From assembly GCA_009823395.1 (NCBI GenBank), contig CM020501.1:11237861-11301860 (forward strand): DNA of 64,000 nt. Reading direction: 5' to 3'. Under the pieces are notes generated by a model. The model ran no database searches and was not told where the DNA came from. It was given only the letters and a program-made list of their open reading frames with translations. The DNA is from Thamnaconus septentrionalis (lineage: Eukaryota; Chordata; Actinopteri; Tetraodontiformes; Monacanthidae). The position numbers and the translations under genes were made by a program. This document shows positions 3,001 through 60,017 of this stretch, one piece after another (position 1 is the stretch's first letter; each line of letters opens with the position of its first letter).

Positions 3001-5837
3001 AAAAAATTAAAATAAACTTTTTGCACTGTGGTGCAATCTGTCTGAGTCAAAGATACAACATGTTCTGTACAGTCAGTTAAACAATAAAGTGACATTACAT
3101 TTCTTCCTGTCTCTAACTTCCTGTCTTGCAGCAACTTTTTATTATTTGTTGCAAGTACAAAGAAATACTACAAGGTGCTCCCAGAAGGGTCGAAGCCTTT
3201 GGGGCAGAAGCTGAAGAAAGGTTGTTGTTGGTAAAAAACATAAATAAATGTGATGTTGTACAATTTAGGGAACCTATTTAAAATGTATCCAAAGTATCGA
3301 TAAGTTTGCATTTTTTAAATATCAACACTGAGCACCCTTATATCTGAAGTAACGGCTGCATCAGGAGTGTAAACATTTTCTGAAGACTCTGGAGTTCAAC
3401 ATCCCAACAACACGGTTTTTATACACGCGAGATGCAGAATATGAAACGAGACTTCTCGCAGCTGGTTTACGTTCTAGTAAATCAGCTGCTTTCAGTGTTG
3501 TTGCTCGTTACCAGGCAACAGAAGTTTGGCATAACTACCCCCCCCCTTTTCCCTATAGTACGGCAGAGAAAATATAGGTCATATGTTCATCCATATTTCA
3601 GGCTGAGCGAGCGTGCGGGGAGAATGTTTGTGTAGGAGCAAGGACCTCCACTCGCAAAGAAAACAAAGGATTCTCTTTGACCGGGGGGGCATGAGAGAAA
3701 ACCCAATTAGCGCTCGAGAAGTTTGTCGACGCGGCAACGTCAACGTGCGCGCGCATGGGAAGCATCGCAACCTCCTCTCAAGGGGGAGAGACGCCTGAGT
3801 GCTTAAAGCACTTCCGAATGGAAACTCAGTCCCCACAAAAGACTGATTCCTGATTCCTTGATTAGAGCAGCAGGATGTCGTTGTTGTTATTTTGTTTTTT
3901 TTTCGAGCAGCTGCAGCAGGTGGGCAAGCTCAGTGGCTGACCTCTCTGACCTAATGACGCTAAGCAAATCAAACCTCACTTATATCACCCCCCAGCTGGG
4001 CCGCAGATGATGGGACGGAGAAGGTAGGAAGGGGGCTCTGCAAACAAAACGTGTGAGAAAAGACGAGGGCGAACGAGTTGTAAATAAATGATGCCAATAT
4101 TACCCCAATCTCAGTGCGGTAAGGCATCTTGAGAAAGAGGTTGACCTGGGAAAAAAAAAATTTTTAAACTTGCGGGAGCTTGCGGCCGACACTGTGCAAG
4201 CAGAGAGTTGCGTTTGGGGGCAAATATTACCTGCAGCATGAGCGCGTGAGGCGAATGGACAAAAATGGAGGCGTTGTCCTTGGGGGAGGACTCGAGGCAG
4301 AGCTGGGCGTCGGTGGCGCGGGGGTTGTACGTGAAGGCGATGCTGGAGGACAGTTTGCCGTCGTACAGTAAGGTCTTGTGGTGCTCCGCGAACAGCAAGT
4401 CGCTCTCCGCCTTGTACTTGAAGGTTCCCTGAGGGAGGGGGTAAGGAAAAAAGGGGAGACTTGAAGAGCAGAGCAAGGAGGAACACACGAGTGTGAATAG
4501 CAAAACAGACATAACATGAAGTGGAAGAAGGAGCAGCTTGGATTGAGACAAGATGCACCTTGGACATGGAAATGCTTGTTGGAGCATCTTCTGCGATGAA
4601 ACTCTCAGCACTGATCTCAGCGTTGATCAGTTCATTATAATAATTGTTCAAATCTTTTTTTTTCTTAAAGGCTAAATAAATAAAAAAATCTTCTTTTTTT
4701 TTTTTTCCTTGCACAGCCAGGCTGTGTCAGGTGCTGGCAGGCTGCAGGAGGGTCAGATAAAGCTGGAAAAACTTGAGTAAGGAACAGATCTAGAGAATAT
4801 ATCTAGTAATTATTTTTCTACATAAAGCTATATTTCTACATAAAGGTATTGACTAAGGTCATATTGTTCCACAGAGGTATTACCATTACCATATTGGGTC
4901 AAGCATGGAGGCACCTCATTTACTATCATTGTATATCTTTGTTTGCTCATTGTTGTGTGTTGTTGAACTTTTGTATATTTCGGACCCTGATGTACAGGGA
5001 TGATAGAAATGTTGTTTGTTGTGTTTTTAATATTATTGATTTCTGTGTTTTGTTACATATTTGTGGCATGAAAAAGCATTTCCAATTACAGGTCATGTGA
5101 CCATCAAGCATTTAAGCACACCTGTGAATGCTCACTTGTCAATGTGAACCTGATGACGCAGTATGCGAAACACGTTGTTCACAGAGAATCAACATTAAGT
5201 AAATGCAGACCTGTCAGTTTGTGGAGGATTCATTTTTTCAAGTCTATGTTTTTTTTTTCTTGTTTGTTTGTTTTTTTTTCTCTCTTCCAACCTGGTATCC
5301 CGGACCCAGCTGATAGATGGCCAGGATCTGAGCAGCGCTGAGAGCCTCTCCGAACAGGTAAACAGCCCCCATCTGGCCGCAGAAGACACGGTTGGCGTCG
5401 GCCGTCTCGGACGATCCCAGGAAACACTTGTCAAATGTCTGCAGACGGGAAGATTGTGATGAAGGTCGGATTTGAGGGGAGGGGAAAGTAAAACAGATAT
5501 AAAAAACAAGTGAGGGGCCAGCACAAGGAGGCAAGACGGAGGCATGGATGGAGGAAAAACAAAACAAAATGAGTTCGACAAAAACAGGGAACGAAGGCAT
5601 AGCGGCGTTCCAAATAGCTTCACACACATTTTGGATAATGTTTAATCTTCCTGTTGTCATGGTTACTAAGGCATAAACACAAGTGCAAGAGGAGATGAGG
5701 CCACGTCTCAATTAATAAACCTCTCAATGATTAATAGAACGCTGTTGAGGCATTTCATTTCAAACATTTGATTCAAGACTCTCATATTGTAGCATTACGG
5801 AGGGCATTTGTCAAGACAGTCACTGACTTCATATGGT

Positions 5838-20800: not shown

Positions 20801-23800
20801 GCATCACATACACGCTGGCGAGGACCGACCATCATGACGGTCTTGGCCGGAACAACATTGTGATTACAGTGTTTATTGATGTGAAAAGAAGCACATCACG
20901 GGGAATTCTTACCTACCTACCCACTGCCTCCACCACGTATCCAGAGAGGCTGTGTAAATATATTTATAATGAAACCATTAAATGGTTTTCCAAATTGCAA
21001 AAAGATACAAATAGCTAAAGCAGCTCACAAGGTTGACAATTAACCTGAGTGGGGCAACTTTAATATGGTCGGAGGTAGAAAAAAAAAGCACCACTGCGGA
21101 TGTATTAAAATTGCATTGGGGATAATAATTAACCTAACTTGTGAAAAAAATGACAGAGGCCACTTCTCGGTTATTACATCATAGGAAACTGTGGCCTACA
21201 TAGGAGACTGCCAAACGTAAACCGATCACGAGATGAGATTTTTATCAGTTGAAATTTTTAATACCTGGTGAATAATGAATAAGGAGAATCTGTGCCCCCT
21301 GCCTGTGCTTCGTGCGGTAAAGGTTGCGAGAGAACTATTTTAAGCGGCACAAAGACGACACAGTTTAGAACAATTAATTCCACCCATGACAGCCAATCTC
21401 AGAGGAGAATCCTCTCCGTCAACATCGGTACGATCAAATGGTACACAGGCAACAAGAAGCCAGAAACCCAGCGTGTTGAGTCAAAGACCGACACCTTCGA
21501 ATAGAGACAAGTTTAAATTAAGAACTAGTAATGTATTCACTCTTTCTGGAGACGCCTTTGAAGGGAACCCAGTACCGCATTTAACGTAAACTTTAGCATT
21601 CCGAAAACATAACACTTTTTATTGCAATGCAAAAGAGAAGTAAACTGACTCACATTCATTTTCTGAGTGTGTTCAACCAAATGATGAACAATGTAAAATA
21701 GTGTAGTGTGATTCATTAGAGTGCAAAGTCAGAGAGTGGATGTTGGTCTGCAAGGATTTATTAATTTGTACTTGCATTAAATATATGCAAGGCAAATGAT
21801 GTAGACGGCCTTGTTACGAACCTAACTCACGTCCACGGCTCGGCTTCCTGGGAACACTTATTACTACCTTCACCATCATACTTCACACCTGTCACAAAGT
21901 AAACTACAAAAACAAAGCTATGTGATGCAGCAACACATTTGACCTTCTGTTGCCCTGCACCACATGACCTTGCATTCAGGTGAAGCCAAAGTTCCATTCC
22001 GCACACCCGTAAATGTAACCTCTTCTAACGAACAGAACTCATGTGCATGGAAGTCAGCTTAGTTCAGAATAGTACAGAGACCTGAGGACTCCATGCTTCA
22101 CTTCCTCAAAGACGCAAACGTGAACATTAGCATCAGTTTAGCCTCACATTAGCATGTAAAGCTTGACTTTTAGTACTTGGAGGATGTCACTGTTGAATGA
22201 CATGACAATGATTTTCATGCCAAATAAGTCTCTTTTAGTGTGGACTTTGACTTGCAAAAAACGTTATAAATCATTCCCAGTAATGTCTGTCACAGACAAA
22301 CCAATCACAACCACGTGGTATTGCTGCTCTCTGCAAATTTCATCATGTCATACCCCGCCCCCCAGCACACACACCACCCCCAAAAAACGCATTGCCACTT
22401 CCTGCTGAACTGTTGTTCACATAGCTTGCTCACAGCGCAGGAGCTCGCTCAAACTAACCGCATACCTCTCAAAGTGAACACGACTGGTAGATGAAGTCAA
22501 ACATTTACTAAGCCCGTTTTTCTCACCAGCTTCTCTCGAGGGTTGGCAGACTGAACTAGGGCAAAAATCCAGGTGACCGTTGGACCTCAGGTTTGCAAGG
22601 CAACCACATATCTACAGTAGCTTATTTGGCTGTGATATATTCAGTTTGGTATAAAAGTAGGTGCAAATTCTACTGCTCTCCACCATTAACTTGGTGTTTT
22701 AGCTCAAAGTTTTGTTATATTTATTGCCAAGTCAAACAACTAAAATAAGCATGGACATTAGTAAAGGACCACAGTTGTCACTGGCATTGCTAATCCTTTA
22801 TGATTATTATCACTGGTGTGTCAATTCAGTCTGGAATGTAAAAATGAAAACTGGCCTTATTTCCAGTACATTTGATATACAATCTTCATTAAAACAACAA
22901 AGGGTGTTTTCTCTTATTCTGGCAAAAACCCTTGAACTTAGAATGAGTTAGTTTTATTGTTCATATACACCCACACAAGCCTGACAAGTGGCCTAAACGA
23001 ACATGACAACACCATTGTGTGTGGACAAAGACACAAAAGACATGTCAGCTCCAAACACGACAAGCTAATAAGTCATTTTTCTGGTTTGTGATAGGTTTGC
23101 TTTGCAAATTGAACAAGTTGGTTGTAGATGGCCCGTCAAGCATGCGGCAATAGCAGGGCCAAGACTGTTAAATTTACACGTTTGTGGTCTGATGGTGAAG
23201 ACTACTGACCAGTGTCATATTGAGATTTTCAAGGATTCTCTTGAGGCAACTGTGCAGGCTTTTAGGAAACACGGTGAGAATGAAGAAATCTGCAAATGAG
23301 ACACCAGTGATTTAGCAGAAGACTCTGGCCTATCCGAGAATAATTAATCATGATATCATCCAAGCAGAGGGAGATCAGAAAATGTGAAGGGCAGAAGAGA
23401 CGGCGTGCGGGGCGGAAGGTGAAAGGAAATAAATGGTGCCATTTCTCAAGTCTGCAAAGTGAACGTGGCAGCAGCTCAAGATCGAGTCAGAAGCCAGGCA
23501 CTACAGTGGAGTCTCTGCATGCCAATTTAGCAGTCAAACAGTCACCTTTTTGTACCACTATTTTTTTGAGATGAGATTAAGAAAAAGGATGATGGAAGAA
23601 GCAGGACTGAAGAATTCTGCTTTGTGATCTTTTTATCCAACACTTGGTTCTATTAATATCAATCACATGCTTAAAATAAATAAAGATGTTAATCAATCAA
23701 GACAAAGGAATCCGCAACCATTAAACAAATATTATAAACTATCAATAATTATAGTTTACCATGTTGAAATTTTCCCTCATAGATGGAAGCTCTGGGTACA

Positions 23801-53822: not shown

Positions 53823-54438
53823 AACAGCAATAACTGATTGTGTGCTTTATGCAACAGCCAAAGGTTGATTTTGATTTAGTTTTTAGCGATACACAGGCTG
53901 CTGGCGAGGCCCCTCTTTTGTTGGCAGTCGGTTGGCAGGTCAACTTTAAACATCTGTTGGAAGAATTAGCTCATGGAATCTCACTTCATACTGAATTTTT
54001 GCAAGTCTGCATTTTTTTTTGTTTCTGTCGGACTTACTTAAAGGACCCATGTTTTGCCAGATTCACTTTACTAGTTACTGTATATACGATTATAGATATG
54101 TGACTATTTTAGCTGTCATCTTTGAAGATGAATAGTCAAGTGTCTGTTATAAATGAAAATGCAAATAATCGCATATATCTTATGAAGACACAATGAATCT
54201 CATTCAGTCACTTTACTAGCGTTTTCTTTCCTTGTCTCCAAATACATGTGCATGAATGATGGCTTGAATAATGAGCTCATCATTCAAACACATTGGTCCA
54301 AAAACATGTTGATAGTTTTTTGATGACGAATCAAAATAGCTTTGTCTTTAGTTGGAGGTATAAGATCCGTAAACAGTGCAACAACTCCATCTTCTTCTTT
54401 TAGTGAATCACAGGCCTGCTAATTAGCAAGTGCTAGCT

Positions 54439-54443
54439 TGCTC
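54439..54443. repeat. target-site duplication, left
   Basis: TGCTC directly before the left LTR; an identical copy follows the right LTR. Confidence 0.85.
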
Positions 54444-54923
54444 TGAAACGGGGGGTGTCTATTGTGGACCCAAATGCAACACACGGACAAGGTTTGGACG
54501 GTTCAAAAAGAAGGCACAGCTTTATTTCTTGCGGGAAAGCGGCTGGTCAGTCGAACAGAGGGGGAAAAGGGGCCAAGGGCAAAAAGGATCCTCCTCTTGG
54601 GAGAAACAGGTCAAAACACCAAACTCACTCAGGCGTCGAATTTCAGGGGAAGGCTGGAGGCGAAAACCAGAACAGGCAAGGTCAGTAGCCGGTGAGTCAG
54701 TCCGGGGTTCCGTGATGCAGCGTCGTGCATGGCAGAAAACAATCTGGCAGGGAGGCGGGAGCAGGGCGGCTAAATAGTCTGGCAGGGAGAGCAGGTGAAG
54801 AGAGTTAATGCTGATTGACCTGGGTGCAGAGAGTTAATGCTGATTGACCTGGGTGCAGAGAGGTGGTGATGCCTTCAGGGAAGAAACGAAAATTAAACAT
54901 GAACATGACAGAAAACCATGACA
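54444..54923 (-). repeat. 3' LTR of the Ty3/Gypsy element
   Basis: 480 bp running TG…CA on both strands. It carries a tandem ~29-bp duplication (about 54803-54860) and a minus-strand AATAAA at 54521-54526. It appears to be the uncorrupted LTR copy. Confidence 0.88.
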
Positions 54924-54941
54924 GAACCCCCCCCCCAAGGG
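54924..54941 (-). other. polypurine tract of the Ty3/Gypsy element
   Basis: On the minus strand a run of ten or so G with flanking purines lies immediately before the 3' LTR, the second-strand primer site. Confidence 0.85.
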
Positions 54942-55261
54942 GCGGCTCCTGACGTCCCAAAAAAAAGAGAACAGGCGGCAACAGACAGAGGGCTAATACT
55001 CGGGTGACGCAGACACTTCCATGTCGGGGAAGTGGTCGGAGGAGAAGGTAACCTGGGGAGGATCATTCGGCTCCTCCAGAGTACCTTGGATGTCAGTCAG
55101 ATCCATGTCCTCCTGGGCATCCTGGCCGTCCAGTGTGTCCAAGTCCATCCCTCTTCGTCCATTGGAACTGGTGGGAGGGGCGTGACCGTTGGGAAGCGGG
55201 TTGCGCAGAGGACGGAGGGCAGGGCTGATCTGGGTTGTCGTGGTGGAAGTCGGTCACAAGC

Positions 55262-55345
55262 TGGGGGTCGACGATGAAGCTAGCGGGGACCCACTGGCGT
55301 TCTTCCGGACCGTAGCCCTCCCAGTCTACCAGATATTGAACGCCC
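55262..55345 (-). pseudogene. chromodomain of the retroelement integrase
   Basis: The minus strand reads [17 protein letters not shown] and then ASFIVDP, a classic chromodomain core that targets integration to modified chromatin in chromoviruses. Confidence 0.85.
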
Positions 55346-56674
55346 CGCCCTCGGCGGCGAGAAGCGGAGGGACGCTGGACAGAAAAACAGGACCGCCTTC
55401 AACCATGCGGGGGGGAGGGGGCGGAGTTGCATGGGGTACCAGAGGGCTTTCCGGAGCAGGTTTGATCTTGGAGACATGAAATGTGGGATGAACACGCATC
55501 GACCTAGGGAGCTTAAGTCTAACTGCAACCGGGTTGATCATCTTCTGAATGGGGAATGGCCCAATAAACCTGGGAGCCAACTTGTTGCTCTCAACGCGGA
55601 GAGGGAGGTCCTTGGTGGACAGCCAAACCTTCTGTCCCACCTTGTATGCTGGAGCTTGAGAGGCGGACGATTGGCAGACCTGGAATAACGGTCGGTGGAC
55701 CGTTGGAGGGCTTTGCGGGCTTGTCTCCAGGTGCGCTGACAGCGTCGCATGAAGGCTTGCACCGATGGGCAGGAGGCGTCCTTCTCGAGGGCTGGAAACA
55801 GTGGAGGCTGATATCCGTAGGCACACTGGAAGGGGGAGAGGCCTGTGGCTGAGCTGATAAGGGTGTTATGGGCATATTCTACCCAAATCAGTTGTTGGGA
55901 CCAGGATGAAGGATTGGATGATACCAAACAACGTAGAGAGGTCTCCATGTCCTGGTTCTTCCTTTCACTCTGGCCGTTCGACTGAGGGTGGAAACCTGAG
56001 GACAGGCTAACGGAGGCTCCCAATAGCGAGCAGAACTCCCGCCAGAAAGCGGAGGTGAACTGGGGACCCCGGTCTGAGGCGACATCAACTGGGATTCCGT
56101 GAGGCGGACAGCGTGTAGGAGGATCAGCTCAGCAGTCTCCTTTGCCGATGGGAGCTTCGGAAGGGAACAAAGTGTGCCATCTTGCTAAACCTGTCCACTA
56201 AGGTGAGGATAGCAGTATTTCCCTCGAGGGGAAGTCCAGTGACAAAATCCAGGAAATATGGGACCAGGGACGACCAGGAATAGGTAGGGGATGGAGATGA
56301 CCAGCAGGAGCCTGATGAGACGGTTTGTGGCGATTGCAGGTTGGACAGGCTTTGATGAATTGCCGCACGTCTGCTTCCATGGAGGGCCACCAAAATCGTC
56401 GTTGCAGGAACTCCCTGGTTCTGAGTGTGCCTGGATGACAGGTGAGTTTGGAGGAATGAGCCCATTGCAGCACTTCAGACCTGAGTGGAGCAGGCACAAA
56501 CAATCGGTTAGAGGGGCATGCGCTAGGTCCTGGCTGGTCAGCGGAAGCGGCTTTGAGTTTCTCCTCAATGTCCCAAAAGAGGGGAGCCACCAGACACGAG
56601 GGAGGCAAAACAGGAACAGAATCTGAAGGCGAGCTCTCCTTGACAAACTGGCGTGACAGGGCATCAGGTTTCAC
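55346..56674 (-). pseudogene. retroelement integrase, frameshifted
   Basis: The HHCC part has [15 protein letters not shown] (about 56340) with upstream histidines. The catalytic core appears as [13 protein letters not shown] and [15 protein letters not shown], in different frames. The C-terminal part reads [13 protein letters not shown]. At least three frame changes separate the pieces. Confidence 0.85.
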
Positions 56675-56789
56675 ATTACGGGACCCAGGGCGATAGGAAA
56701 GAAAAATTGAGGCGAGTGAAAAACAGAGACCAGCGAGCAGCGTGAGTTCAGGCGTTTAAGCGGTGCGAATGTATTCGAGGTTCTTGTGA

Positions 56790-57011
56790 TCAGTCCAGGC
56801 GAGGCGGAACCTTTGTACCTTCTAGCCAGTGTCGCCACTCCTCCAAGGCCAGCTTCACCGCCAGTAGTTCTCGGTTCCCGATGTCGTAGTTCTGTTCTGC
56901 GGGATTCAGGCGGCGAGAGAAGAACGCACATGGGTGTAGCTTCTGGTCGGACGCAGAACGCTGAGACAGCACAGCTCCTACTCCAATGTCAGGCGTCCAC
57001 CTCCACCACAA
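56790..57011 (-). pseudogene. retroelement RNase H fragment
   Basis: It contains [10 protein letters not shown] and [20 protein letters not shown], typical of Ty3/Gypsy RNase H. It is out of frame with the reverse transcriptase piece. Confidence 0.85.
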
Positions 57012-57850
57012 ACTGTTGGTCGGGATCGGGCAACTGGAGGATTGGGGCTGTGGTAAAACGGGTCTTCAGAGTTTCAAAGGCCCGACTGGCAGACGGGTTC
57101 CAGGAGAACATTACCTTGGGGGAGGTGAGGGCTGTGAGAGGAGCAGCCAGAGTGCTGTAGCCTCGAATAAATCGGCGGTAAAAGTTGGCAAAACCGAGGA
57201 AACGTTGCAGCTGTTTCCTGGTCTCAGGGACGGGCCAGGAGGAGACCGCAGAGACCTTTGCAGGGTCCATTTGAAGGCTCCCCTGAGCGACAATGTAGCC
57301 TAGGAAAGAAACTGATGATACATGGAATTCACATTTCTCAGCCTTGACAAAAAGAGAGTTCTCGAGAAGCCGCTGCAGGACAGCCTTAACGTGAAGGGTG
57401 TGTTCCTCCTTTGACCTGGAGAAGATCAGGATGTCATCCAAGTGAGGCGAAAACATAACGGTTGAGCATGTCTCGGAGGACGTCATTAACCAGAGTCTGA
57501 AATACTGCAGGGCATTGGTTAAACCGAAAGGCATTACCAGGTACTCGTAATGTCCTGTTGGGGTGTTGAATGCCGTCTTCCACTCGTCTCCTTCCCTAAT
57601 GCGAACCAAATGGTAAGCGTTTCGGAGGTCTAAGCTTGGTGAAGACACTGGCCCCTTGGAGAAGTTCAAATGCAGTGGTCATGAGAGGCAGCGGGTATCG
57701 GTTCTTTACCGTTATGTCGTTGAGGCCCTGTAGTCGATGCACGGTCTGAGAGTCTTGTCCTTCTTGTCTCACGAAAAAGAAGCCGGCACCCGCAGGAGAG
57801 GGACGAGGGTCGTATAATGCCTGCCGCCAGGGAGTCGTTGATGTCACGTC
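57012..57850 (-). pseudogene. retroelement reverse transcriptase, frameshifted
   Basis: Pieces include [53 protein letters not shown] and the catalytic [14 protein letters not shown]. The connecting stretches shift frame near 57650 and 57500. Confidence 0.88.
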
Positions 57851-57934
57851 TCCATAGCCTCCCTCTCAGGACCTGAAATAGAGTAGAGGCGCGCCTTGGG
57901 CGGAGAGGTACCAGAAAGGAGGTCGATCGCACAG

Positions 57935-58390
57935 TCATATGGCGGTGAGGAGGCAGAGACTTTGCCTTGGTTTTACAAAAACCTCTCCTAGATCATGGTA
58001 CTCTGGAGGAACTCTGGAAAGGTCAGGCGGGTCTCGGAGAGGGCAGCATGCTGGTGCGGCTGCCTGTTTGAGGCAAACTTGATGGCAAAAAGGGCTCCAA
58101 CCACGGATTGCTCCTGCCGACCAGTCGACGAGTGGGTTGTGGCGACGGAGCCAGGGGTAGCCCAGGATCAGAGGGACACGGTGTGAAGGCAGGACAAAAA
58201 ACTGGATGGCTTCATGATGATTTCCGGACATCAGTAGTTTAACCGGCTCTGTCTGGTGAGTGACCGTTCCCAGCAGATGGCCATCTAGGGCCCGGGCAGG
58301 CACAGGTTTAGGCAGGGGCAGGCAATCAATACCCAGTTGACGGGCTAGTCCTTCATCAATGAGGTTTGCATCCGCACCAGAGTCAATCAA
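57935..58390 (-). pseudogene. retroelement aspartic protease fragment
   Basis: MIDSGADANLIDEGLARQLG carries the DSGA active site of retropepsins, followed by VPLILGYPWLRRHNP. Confidence 0.85.
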
Positions 58391-58439
58391 ACAAGACAGG
58401 AGTTCAGAAGTTTCAGGCAGAAGGAGCTTGACGAGAAAC

Positions 58440-59494
58440 AGTGGGCGGTCAGATACGGAGGAGGCATTAAAGAGGATGGACTCACCAGTAGCTCCTCACC
58501 TGCTGATGAGCTCCCCTTTACTGGACAGTTCCGGATGAAGTGGCCAGGCCGACCACAGTAGAGACAGAGATCTGCCTTGCGGCGCGCTCCCGTTCCTCTG
58601 GGGACAGGCTGGTGCGACCCACTTGCATGGGTTCCACGTTGCTGTGTGAGGATTCGGTACTGGCTGCAAGGGGGGCGGTCGACCCCCGGGCATAGCTTCG
58701 AGGCGATGGAGCCGGAACCCGGGTGGTGAGCATCGGCCGTCTCTCCCTCCGGCGAGTCAGGATGCGGAGGTCGATGGTTGAAGCGAGGGCAATGGCGCCA
58801 TCGAGAGAGGTGGGAAGGACATGGGACACTAGCTCATCCTTAATGTAATCAGCTAACCCGTGCAGGAAGGCGTCACGAAGAGCCCCCTCGTTCCAGTCGC
58901 TTTGGCGGGCCTTCGTACGGAAGTCAATGGCGAAGTCAGAGACTGACCGGTTTCCCTGATGTACCTTCAGAAGGCCGCTGGCAACAGTTGAGTGGGCGCC
59001 CTGGCGAAGACCTTACGCAGTTCAGCTGAGAATTCCCCAAAGAAGCGCAGGCCGTGGTCCTCTTATCCCACTCAGCAGTCCCCCACAGTCTCGCTCTACC
59101 GGTAAGTTGATTCACTGTGAATGCCACCTTCGCTTCCTCCGTGGCAAAGGTGAGGGGTTGTAAGGAAAAAAAAATAGAACAATTGGTCAAAAAGCAGGTT
59201 GCACCCTCAGGCTCCGCTGCATCGTTCAGGGGCTCCTATGCGTGGCTCGAAACTGACCTTGCGGGGAGAAGGAAGTCGTGACCTGTGCGGGCTCTGGGGT
59301 AGCGCTAATAGGGGTTATCTGGGCCACGGTCGCAGCTAGCTGTTGCACCTGGTTGATTAGGGTGGAGAGGCTCTGTTCCTGGGTGGCTGCGGTTTGTCTT
59401 GCCTCAGCTGCAGCGGAGGCCAGAACAGTCTCGTGCTGCTGGAGAATCCTTCAATCTGCTCAAAGCGGTTCTTGGGTGTGTGTGCTGGGTCCAT
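58440..59494 (-). pseudogene. retroelement gag, frameshifted
   Basis: It starts at the ATG at 59494 (MDPAHTPKNRFEQIEGF). A capsid piece lies near 58936-59190. A CCHC zinc knuckle lies at 58525-58566 (CLYCGRPGHFIRNC), readable in only one frame. Several frame changes. Confidence 0.82.
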
Positions 59495-59532
59495 AAACTT
59501 CTGGCCAGATTGTACTCACTTCAAACTGGGCA

Positions 59533-60012
59533 AGTGTCTCTGTCGGTTAAAGGACCCATGTTTTGCCAGATTCACACTTTACAAGTTTGGACGGTTCAAA
59601 AAGAAGGCACAGCTTTATTTCTTGCGGGAAAGCGGCTGGTCATCTCGAACAGAGGGGAATAAGGGCCAAGGGCAAAAAGGATCCTCCTCTTGGGAGAAAC
59701 AGGTCAAAACACCAAACTCACTCAGGCGAAGAATTTCATGAAGGCTCGAAAACCAGAACAGGCAAGGTCAGTACGGTGAGTCAGTCCGTTTTCTTTCCGT
59801 GATGCAGCGTCGTGCATGGCAGAAAACAATCTGGCAGGGAGGAGCTCATCATTCAAACTAAATAGTCTGGCAGGAGAGCAGGTTGAAGAGAGTTAATGCT
59901 CAATTGACCTGGGTGCAGAGAGTTAATGCTGATTGACCTGGGTGCAGAGAGGTGGTGATGCCTTCAGGGAAGAAACGAAAATTAAACATGAACATGACAG
60001 AAAACCATGACA
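59533..60012 (-). repeat. 5' LTR of the Ty3/Gypsy element, chimeric copy
   Basis: Its right third and most of its centre match the 3' LTR, but several blocks are replaced by sequence found at 53979-54290. The first ~45 bp of its left end no longer match the 3' LTR. Confidence 0.8.
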
Positions 60013-60017
60013 TGCTC
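60013..60017. repeat. target-site duplication, right
   Basis: TGCTC directly after the right LTR terminus CATGACA. Confidence 0.85.

What the first reader, a model, noticed from the sequence alone, without database searches (positions are those of the whole stretch)
59513..60012. Right LTR is an ordered mosaic of LTR and left host flank
Seen: blocks absent from the left LTR but present in the host flank left of the element occur in the right LTR in the same order. The matches are 54039-54066 = 59548-59575 (28 bp exact), 54221-54231 = 59788-59798 and 54273-54289 = 59842-59858 (17 bp exact). Offsets are 5509, 5567 and 5569, converging on the 5574 bp of element plus target duplication. Inference: an allele without the insertion was aligned with its gap placed too far left, so its flank was stacked on the right LTR and merged into the consensus. 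The fish is then probably heterozygous for a young insertion, and the PBS and 5' LTR in this sequence are not real. Gene conversion would not predict this offset.
Basis: partly seen in the sequence, partly recalled or inferred. Interest (0 to 1): 0.75.

Follow-up and report, generated by a model that had tools for sequence, protein, structure and literature searches.

The report
Blended retrotransposon end: assembly artefact
The odd right end of this (likely fish) retrotransposon copy is a patchwork of the element's own end and the host DNA on its other side, likely made by assembly software blending reads from a chromosome with the insertion and one predicted to lack it, so it is probably an artefact of a known kind and not biology.

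Summary
Observation confirmed, interpretation largely supported. The element (54444-60012, minus strand, duplication TGCTC) is a Ty3/Gypsy-type, chromodomain-bearing LTR retrotransposon with many relatives in the same assembly. Six full relatives have clean right LTRs; here the right LTR is scrambled from about 59495-59517 to 59902. In order, the left host flank (about 53940-54330) explains its foreign letters better than every shuffled, reversed or other control; a clean relative shows no such signal. The flank occurs once, apart from a short dispersed repeat. The offset fits an allele without the insertion. A toy consensus gives this texture only near 1:1 insertion:empty reads, but not the particular blocks. 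A second mosaic of the family lies on contig C71, where the element's right end is blended with the host repeat it entered. This matches a published error class, 'haplotype switch' at heterozygous SV breakpoints (PMC8590762). Unproven without reads: heterozygosity, and the program responsible.

The parts
53940..54438 (+). left host flank, source of the foreign letters in the right LTR
   Evidence: one full-length match in the assembly, 39 short ones to a dispersed repeat at about 54105-54217; lowest cost as second source
54439..54443 (.). target duplication TGCTC, left copy
54444..54923 (-). left LTR (3' LTR), clean
   Evidence: 5 private positions against six relatives; 12 of 12 relative LTRs shown start at the same place
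54924..59515 (-). internal part with pieces of gag, protease, RT, RNase H, integrase and chromodomain
   Evidence: Pfam matches of separate frame pieces
59498..59515 (-). 18 bases next to the 5' LTR (primer-site side), intact
   Evidence: equal in 6 of 6 relatives
59517..59902 (-). mosaic part of the right LTR (5' LTR); three private bases at 59495-59497 may belong to it
59547..59575 (+). 29-bp block equal to flank 54038-54066
59787..59798 (+). 12-bp block equal to flank 54220-54231
59842..59858 (+). 17-bp block equal to flank 54273-54289
59903..60012 (-). clean end of the right LTR, identical to the left LTR
60013..60017 (.). target duplication TGCTC, right copy

Best explanation
The right LTR in this sequence is a blend of two sequences, the retrotransposon's own LTR and the host DNA left of the element, likely produced by assembly or polishing software from noisy long reads of an insertion-bearing chromosome mixed with reads from one predicted to lack the insertion. 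Shown: the mosaic follows the LTR and the left flank in order, the offset approaches element length plus target duplication, the left LTR and the relatives' LTRs compared are clean, and a second blend exists on contig C71. Inferred: reads of the empty allele were laid over about 59495-60012 with their 5.57-kb gap too far left, and the consensus switched between the two sources, often beside words that both share by chance. Inferred: the sampled animal, or pool, is polymorphic for a young insertion, with both alleles at near-equal read depth. The mosaic 5' LTR probably exists on no chromosome.
For: Cost of explaining the right LTR with a clean relative plus the true left flank: 559 against at least 573 in 60 shuffles (z -4.3) and at least 574 in 60 window segments (z -4.2), with right flank 583, reverse complement 591, reversed 589 and more outward flank 616 and 599; in another weighting 862 against at least 918 in 40 block shuffles (z -7.5) and at least 916 in 40 segments (z -4.1), right flank 964. 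Control: a clean relative's right LTR with the same flank, z +0.3 against 20 shuffles. 83 of 139 private positions fall in the last 570 bases and none after 59943. Flank single-copy apart from a short repeat. Toy consensus of 20 simulated reads: blended only at 11:9, 10:10 and 9:11, with 60-71 source changes against 45 observed. C71: cost 1120 against at least 1294 in 30 shuffles (z -12.8) and at least 1310 in 30 segments (z -8.4) with one element-free host-repeat copy, z -14.2 against 30 shuffles with a second copy, z -0.6 for a clean relative. Published class: PMC8590762.
Against: No reads were seen. No contig with the empty site was found by the left flank; the right-flank search did not complete. 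The last 110 bases (window) and about 117 bases (C71) next to the right junction are clean, where empty-allele reads should be best anchored. The left LTR carries no sign of the right flank. The simulation did not reproduce the particular blocks: in 36 runs two of the three long block words appeared once each and the third never. Blind alignment placed five landmarks well in 1 of 20 settings only. In one search 12 of 550 letters stayed unexplained; none did, but controls too left only 0.7 on average.
Confidence: 0.93

Rival explanations
1. Same blend, but the empty sequence comes from other animals in a pooled sample and not from the second chromosome of one fish.
For: Nothing here separates the two; near 1:1 depth is only suggested by a toy simulation.
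Against: Near-equal depth is what one heterozygous animal gives most simply (inference).
Confidence: 0.1
2. The foreign reads come from another locus that resembles the left flank, not from the empty allele.
For: Part of the flank, about 54105-54217, is a dispersed repeat.
Against: The 29-, 12- and 17-bp blocks lie outside that repeat, and the whole flank matches one place only; offset and order fit the empty site.
Confidence: 0.03
3. A real rearranged LTR: gene conversion, template switching or patch repair copied left-flank pieces into the 5' LTR.
For: Patches often sit beside short words shared by LTR and flank (my reading), as template switching would also give.
Against: It needs tens of switches (45 source changes in one alignment) between unrelated sequences within about 400 bp, in step with an absent allele; a second case with the same look lies on another contig.
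Confidence: 0.02
4. Ordinary decay of an old LTR plus chance matches.
For: Other truncated or diverged copies of the family exist (L032-L035).
Against: The last 110 bases equal the left LTR, the left LTR is clean, and the flank chain beats 20 of 20 nulls.
Confidence: 0.01

Closest known systems
'Haplotype switch' structural assembly error at a heterozygous SV breakpoint (Inspector, PMC8590762; section 5 and passages seen)
   Same: The assembled sequence lies between two haplotypes at the edge of an insertion.
   Different: Here it can be read letter by letter from the assembly because the second source is still present as the left flank; read support was not tested.
Switch errors from polishing with reads of both haplotypes (VGP, PMC8081667; passages seen)
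   Same: Reads of two haplotypes feed one consensus.
   Different: Those passages speak of haplotype markers; here unrelated sequences are blended.
Ty3/Gypsy chromodomain retrotransposon (chromovirus group, Tf2/Sushi-like; group name recalled)
   Same: Domain order, chromodomain, TG...CA ends, 5-bp duplication.
   Different: Only the spoiled 5' LTR and the broken frames of this copy.

Membership tests
Haplotype-switch assembly error (PMC8590762) | sequence between two haplotypes, matching neither | tested here: met
   blend of LTR and left flank, with controls
Haplotype-switch assembly error (PMC8590762) | lies at a heterozygous SV breakpoint | tested here: inconclusive
   it lies at the edge of an LTR element with target duplication; heterozygosity is inferred only
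Haplotype-switch assembly error (PMC8590762) | reads of one haplotype suggest collapse, those of the other expansion | not testable with these tools
   no reads held
Ty3/Gypsy chromodomain LTR retrotransposon | RT and RNase H before integrase, chromodomain last | tested here: met
   RVT_1, RT_RNaseH_2, Integrase_H2C2, rve (below its curated cut-off), SH3_Tf2-1, Chromo in that order on the minus strand
Ty3/Gypsy chromodomain LTR retrotransposon | TG...CA LTRs and 5-bp target duplication | tested here: met
   window, and 6 of 7 other LTR pairs; L010 shows no matching duplication
Gene conversion or template-switch product | tracts copied from a homologous donor | tested here: not met
   donor flank is unrelated to the LTR; patches are at most 29 bases

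The most novel reading that the evidence does not exclude
Blended insertion edges are a readable fossil of heterozygosity: from a finished one-haplotype assembly alone, without reads, one can find young insertions that were polymorphic in the sequenced sample, read part of the lost allele from the blend, and detect insertions that the assembler mostly dropped (C71).
Probability: 0.6. Interest if true: 0.4.

Novelty: not a real feature. Interest (0 to 1): 0.25.

Why it matters
Such blends give false LTR divergence: the two LTRs align at 91% although the clean end is identical, so a young insertion would be dated as old and its 5' LTR misread. They may also mark polymorphic insertions. C71 suggests that this is not a single accident in this assembly.

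Tried and rejected
Looked for an empty-site contig by the left flank: none among the 40 scored candidates. The same question for the right flank did not complete. The word scan looks only 900 bases either side of an LTR, so for the window's right LTR it cannot reach the left host flank; for the left LTR it found nothing. Five odd-looking LTR places were fetched out of the 46 matches; others that looked odd there (on C77, C12, C16:2200976, C15:999718) and six copies of 74-76% identity were not. Of the five, L032-L035 look like truncated copies or a subfamily with about 39 extra bases and L036 (C71) is a mosaic. In one search the L040 copy was used in the wrong orientation (cost 1354); redone. 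Blind alignment of flank to LTR put five landmarks within 12 bases in 1 of 20 settings. The simulation gives texture, not blocks. Paper searches listed none; others listed 2, 3 and 4. I saw passages of four papers (PMC13371464, PMC7466960, PMC8081667, PMC8590762) and section 5 of the last; the others as listings only. None of what I saw describes a letter-level LTR/flank blend, which does not show that none is in print.

Full report
What was checked. The window is G000:C1:11237861-11301860 of an unnamed 474-Mb assembly in 132 contigs. In a search for in-order exact matches across the window, the flank/right-LTR chain is the best after the LTR pair itself: 46 bases against at most 26 in 20 nulls.

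What the element is. The LTR begins TGAAACGGGGGG, as in 12 of 12 LTRs of six other elements shown (one of the 12 has one base changed there). It lies on the minus strand, so the right LTR is its 5' LTR. Separate pieces of its frames match gag, zinc knuckle, aspartic protease, reverse transcriptase, RNase H, integrase, Tf2-type SH3 and chromodomain in Ty3/Gypsy order; gag and rve are below their curated cut-offs. Of the best 120 relatives of its RT piece, 20 carry an organism name and 18 of these are fishes; that the window is from a fish is inferred from this.

Where the mosaic is. Against six relatives, 83 of 139 private positions fall in the last 570 bases, none of them after 59943. Against each relative singly, mismatches are 38-41 and 27-38 in the 250-base bins from 59444 and 59694, then 0 or 1. 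Smaller rises elsewhere, such as 11-17 mismatches in the bin from 59194, up to 14 from 55194 and 17 against L009 from 55694, were not explained. The 18 bases beside the LTR, 59498-59515, equal all six relatives; the three bases before them do not.

Where the foreign letters come from. I aligned three sequences at once (clean relative L009, left flank, mosaic) and let each mosaic letter be explained by either source. With the true flank the cost was below every control: 60 shuffles, 60 window segments and 5 named sequences in one weighting, 40, 40 and 3 in another. The right LTR of a clean relative (L012) with the same flank scores like its 20 shuffles, z +0.3. In the first weighting 12 of 550 letters stay unexplained; in the second none, but its controls leave only 0.7 on average, so the cost carries the weight and not that count. 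The flank matches one place at full length; the other 39 matches lie within about 54105-54217, outside all three blocks (40 of 73 candidates were scored).

Why an empty allele. Flank letters sit in the right LTR at offsets from 5509 rising to 5569, towards 5574. A sequence in which the left flank abuts the right flank would be laid there. Left-junction reads, or a solo-LTR allele, would give an offset near 5089 (inference from geometry; 5089 is the LTR spacing). The last 110 bases of the two LTRs are identical, as expected of a young insertion.

Does the mechanism make such a pattern? A simple partial-order consensus of 20 simulated noisy reads, from a real clean copy and from the flank, was clean or nearly so at 20:0, 16:4 and 13:7 (0-13 source changes), blended at 11:9, 10:10 and 9:11 (60-71 changes, 0-1 unexplained letters; observed 45 and 0), and nearly pure flank at 7:13 (two runs each). 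So the blend points to near-equal depth. In 36 further runs near that ratio, two of the three long block words appeared once each and the third never: texture is reproduced, details are not.

A second case. On contig C71 the family's right 0.94 kb (L036 237-1177) stands without the rest of the element and is patchy, with a nearly clean last stretch of about 117 bases. Its right flank is a dispersed repeat. Two copies of that repeat that run on without the element supply the missing left flank. The C71 patches match them in order: cost 1120 against at least 1294 in 30 shuffles (z -12.8) and at least 1310 in 30 window segments (z -8.4) for L039, and z -14.2 against 30 shuffles for L040; a clean relative gives z -0.6. 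The host side further left matches the two copies at 96 and 95%. The contig thus seems to pass from the empty haplotype into the insertion haplotype through a blend.

Known or new. [quoted passage not shown] The VGP paper reports switch errors when reads from both haplotypes are used (PMC8081667, passages). So the mosaic is an artefact of a known class. What may be useful is that it can be read from the assembly alone.

What remains open. No reads were seen, so heterozygosity and the program are inferred. The clean ends beside the right junction in both cases, and the one-sidedness in the window, are unexplained.

Noticed in passing
L036 237-1177 (G000:C71, about 21736-22676): Second mosaic of the same family: right end of the element blended with the host repeat it entered; the rest of the element is absent from the stretch fetched to its left.
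   Followed up: yes
59903-60012, and L036 about 1061-1177: In both mosaics the last 110-117 bases next to the right host junction are clean (C71 has one extra T); no reason found.
   Followed up: partly
54924-59490: Coding frames of this copy are broken into several pieces; whether by decay or leftover base errors was not tested.
   Followed up: no
54564-59413: Of the 56 private positions left of the mosaic, about 16 are G here and A in the relatives against about 6 the other way (my count on the list).
   Followed up: no
59194-59220: A small cluster of 9 private differences inside the element, left of the mosaic, not explained.
   Followed up: no
54105-54217: Part of a short dispersed repeat inside the left host flank, with at least 39 partial matches elsewhere in the assembly.
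   Followed up: no
L032, L034, L035: A second LTR subfamily with about 39 extra bases.
   Followed up: no
P0002: A 1420-base contig labelled Escherichia coli encodes an RT 72% identical to this element's RT piece: likely animal DNA in a bacterial assembly.
   Followed up: no
L010: The only one of 7 other LTR pairs without a matching 5-bp duplication.
   Followed up: no
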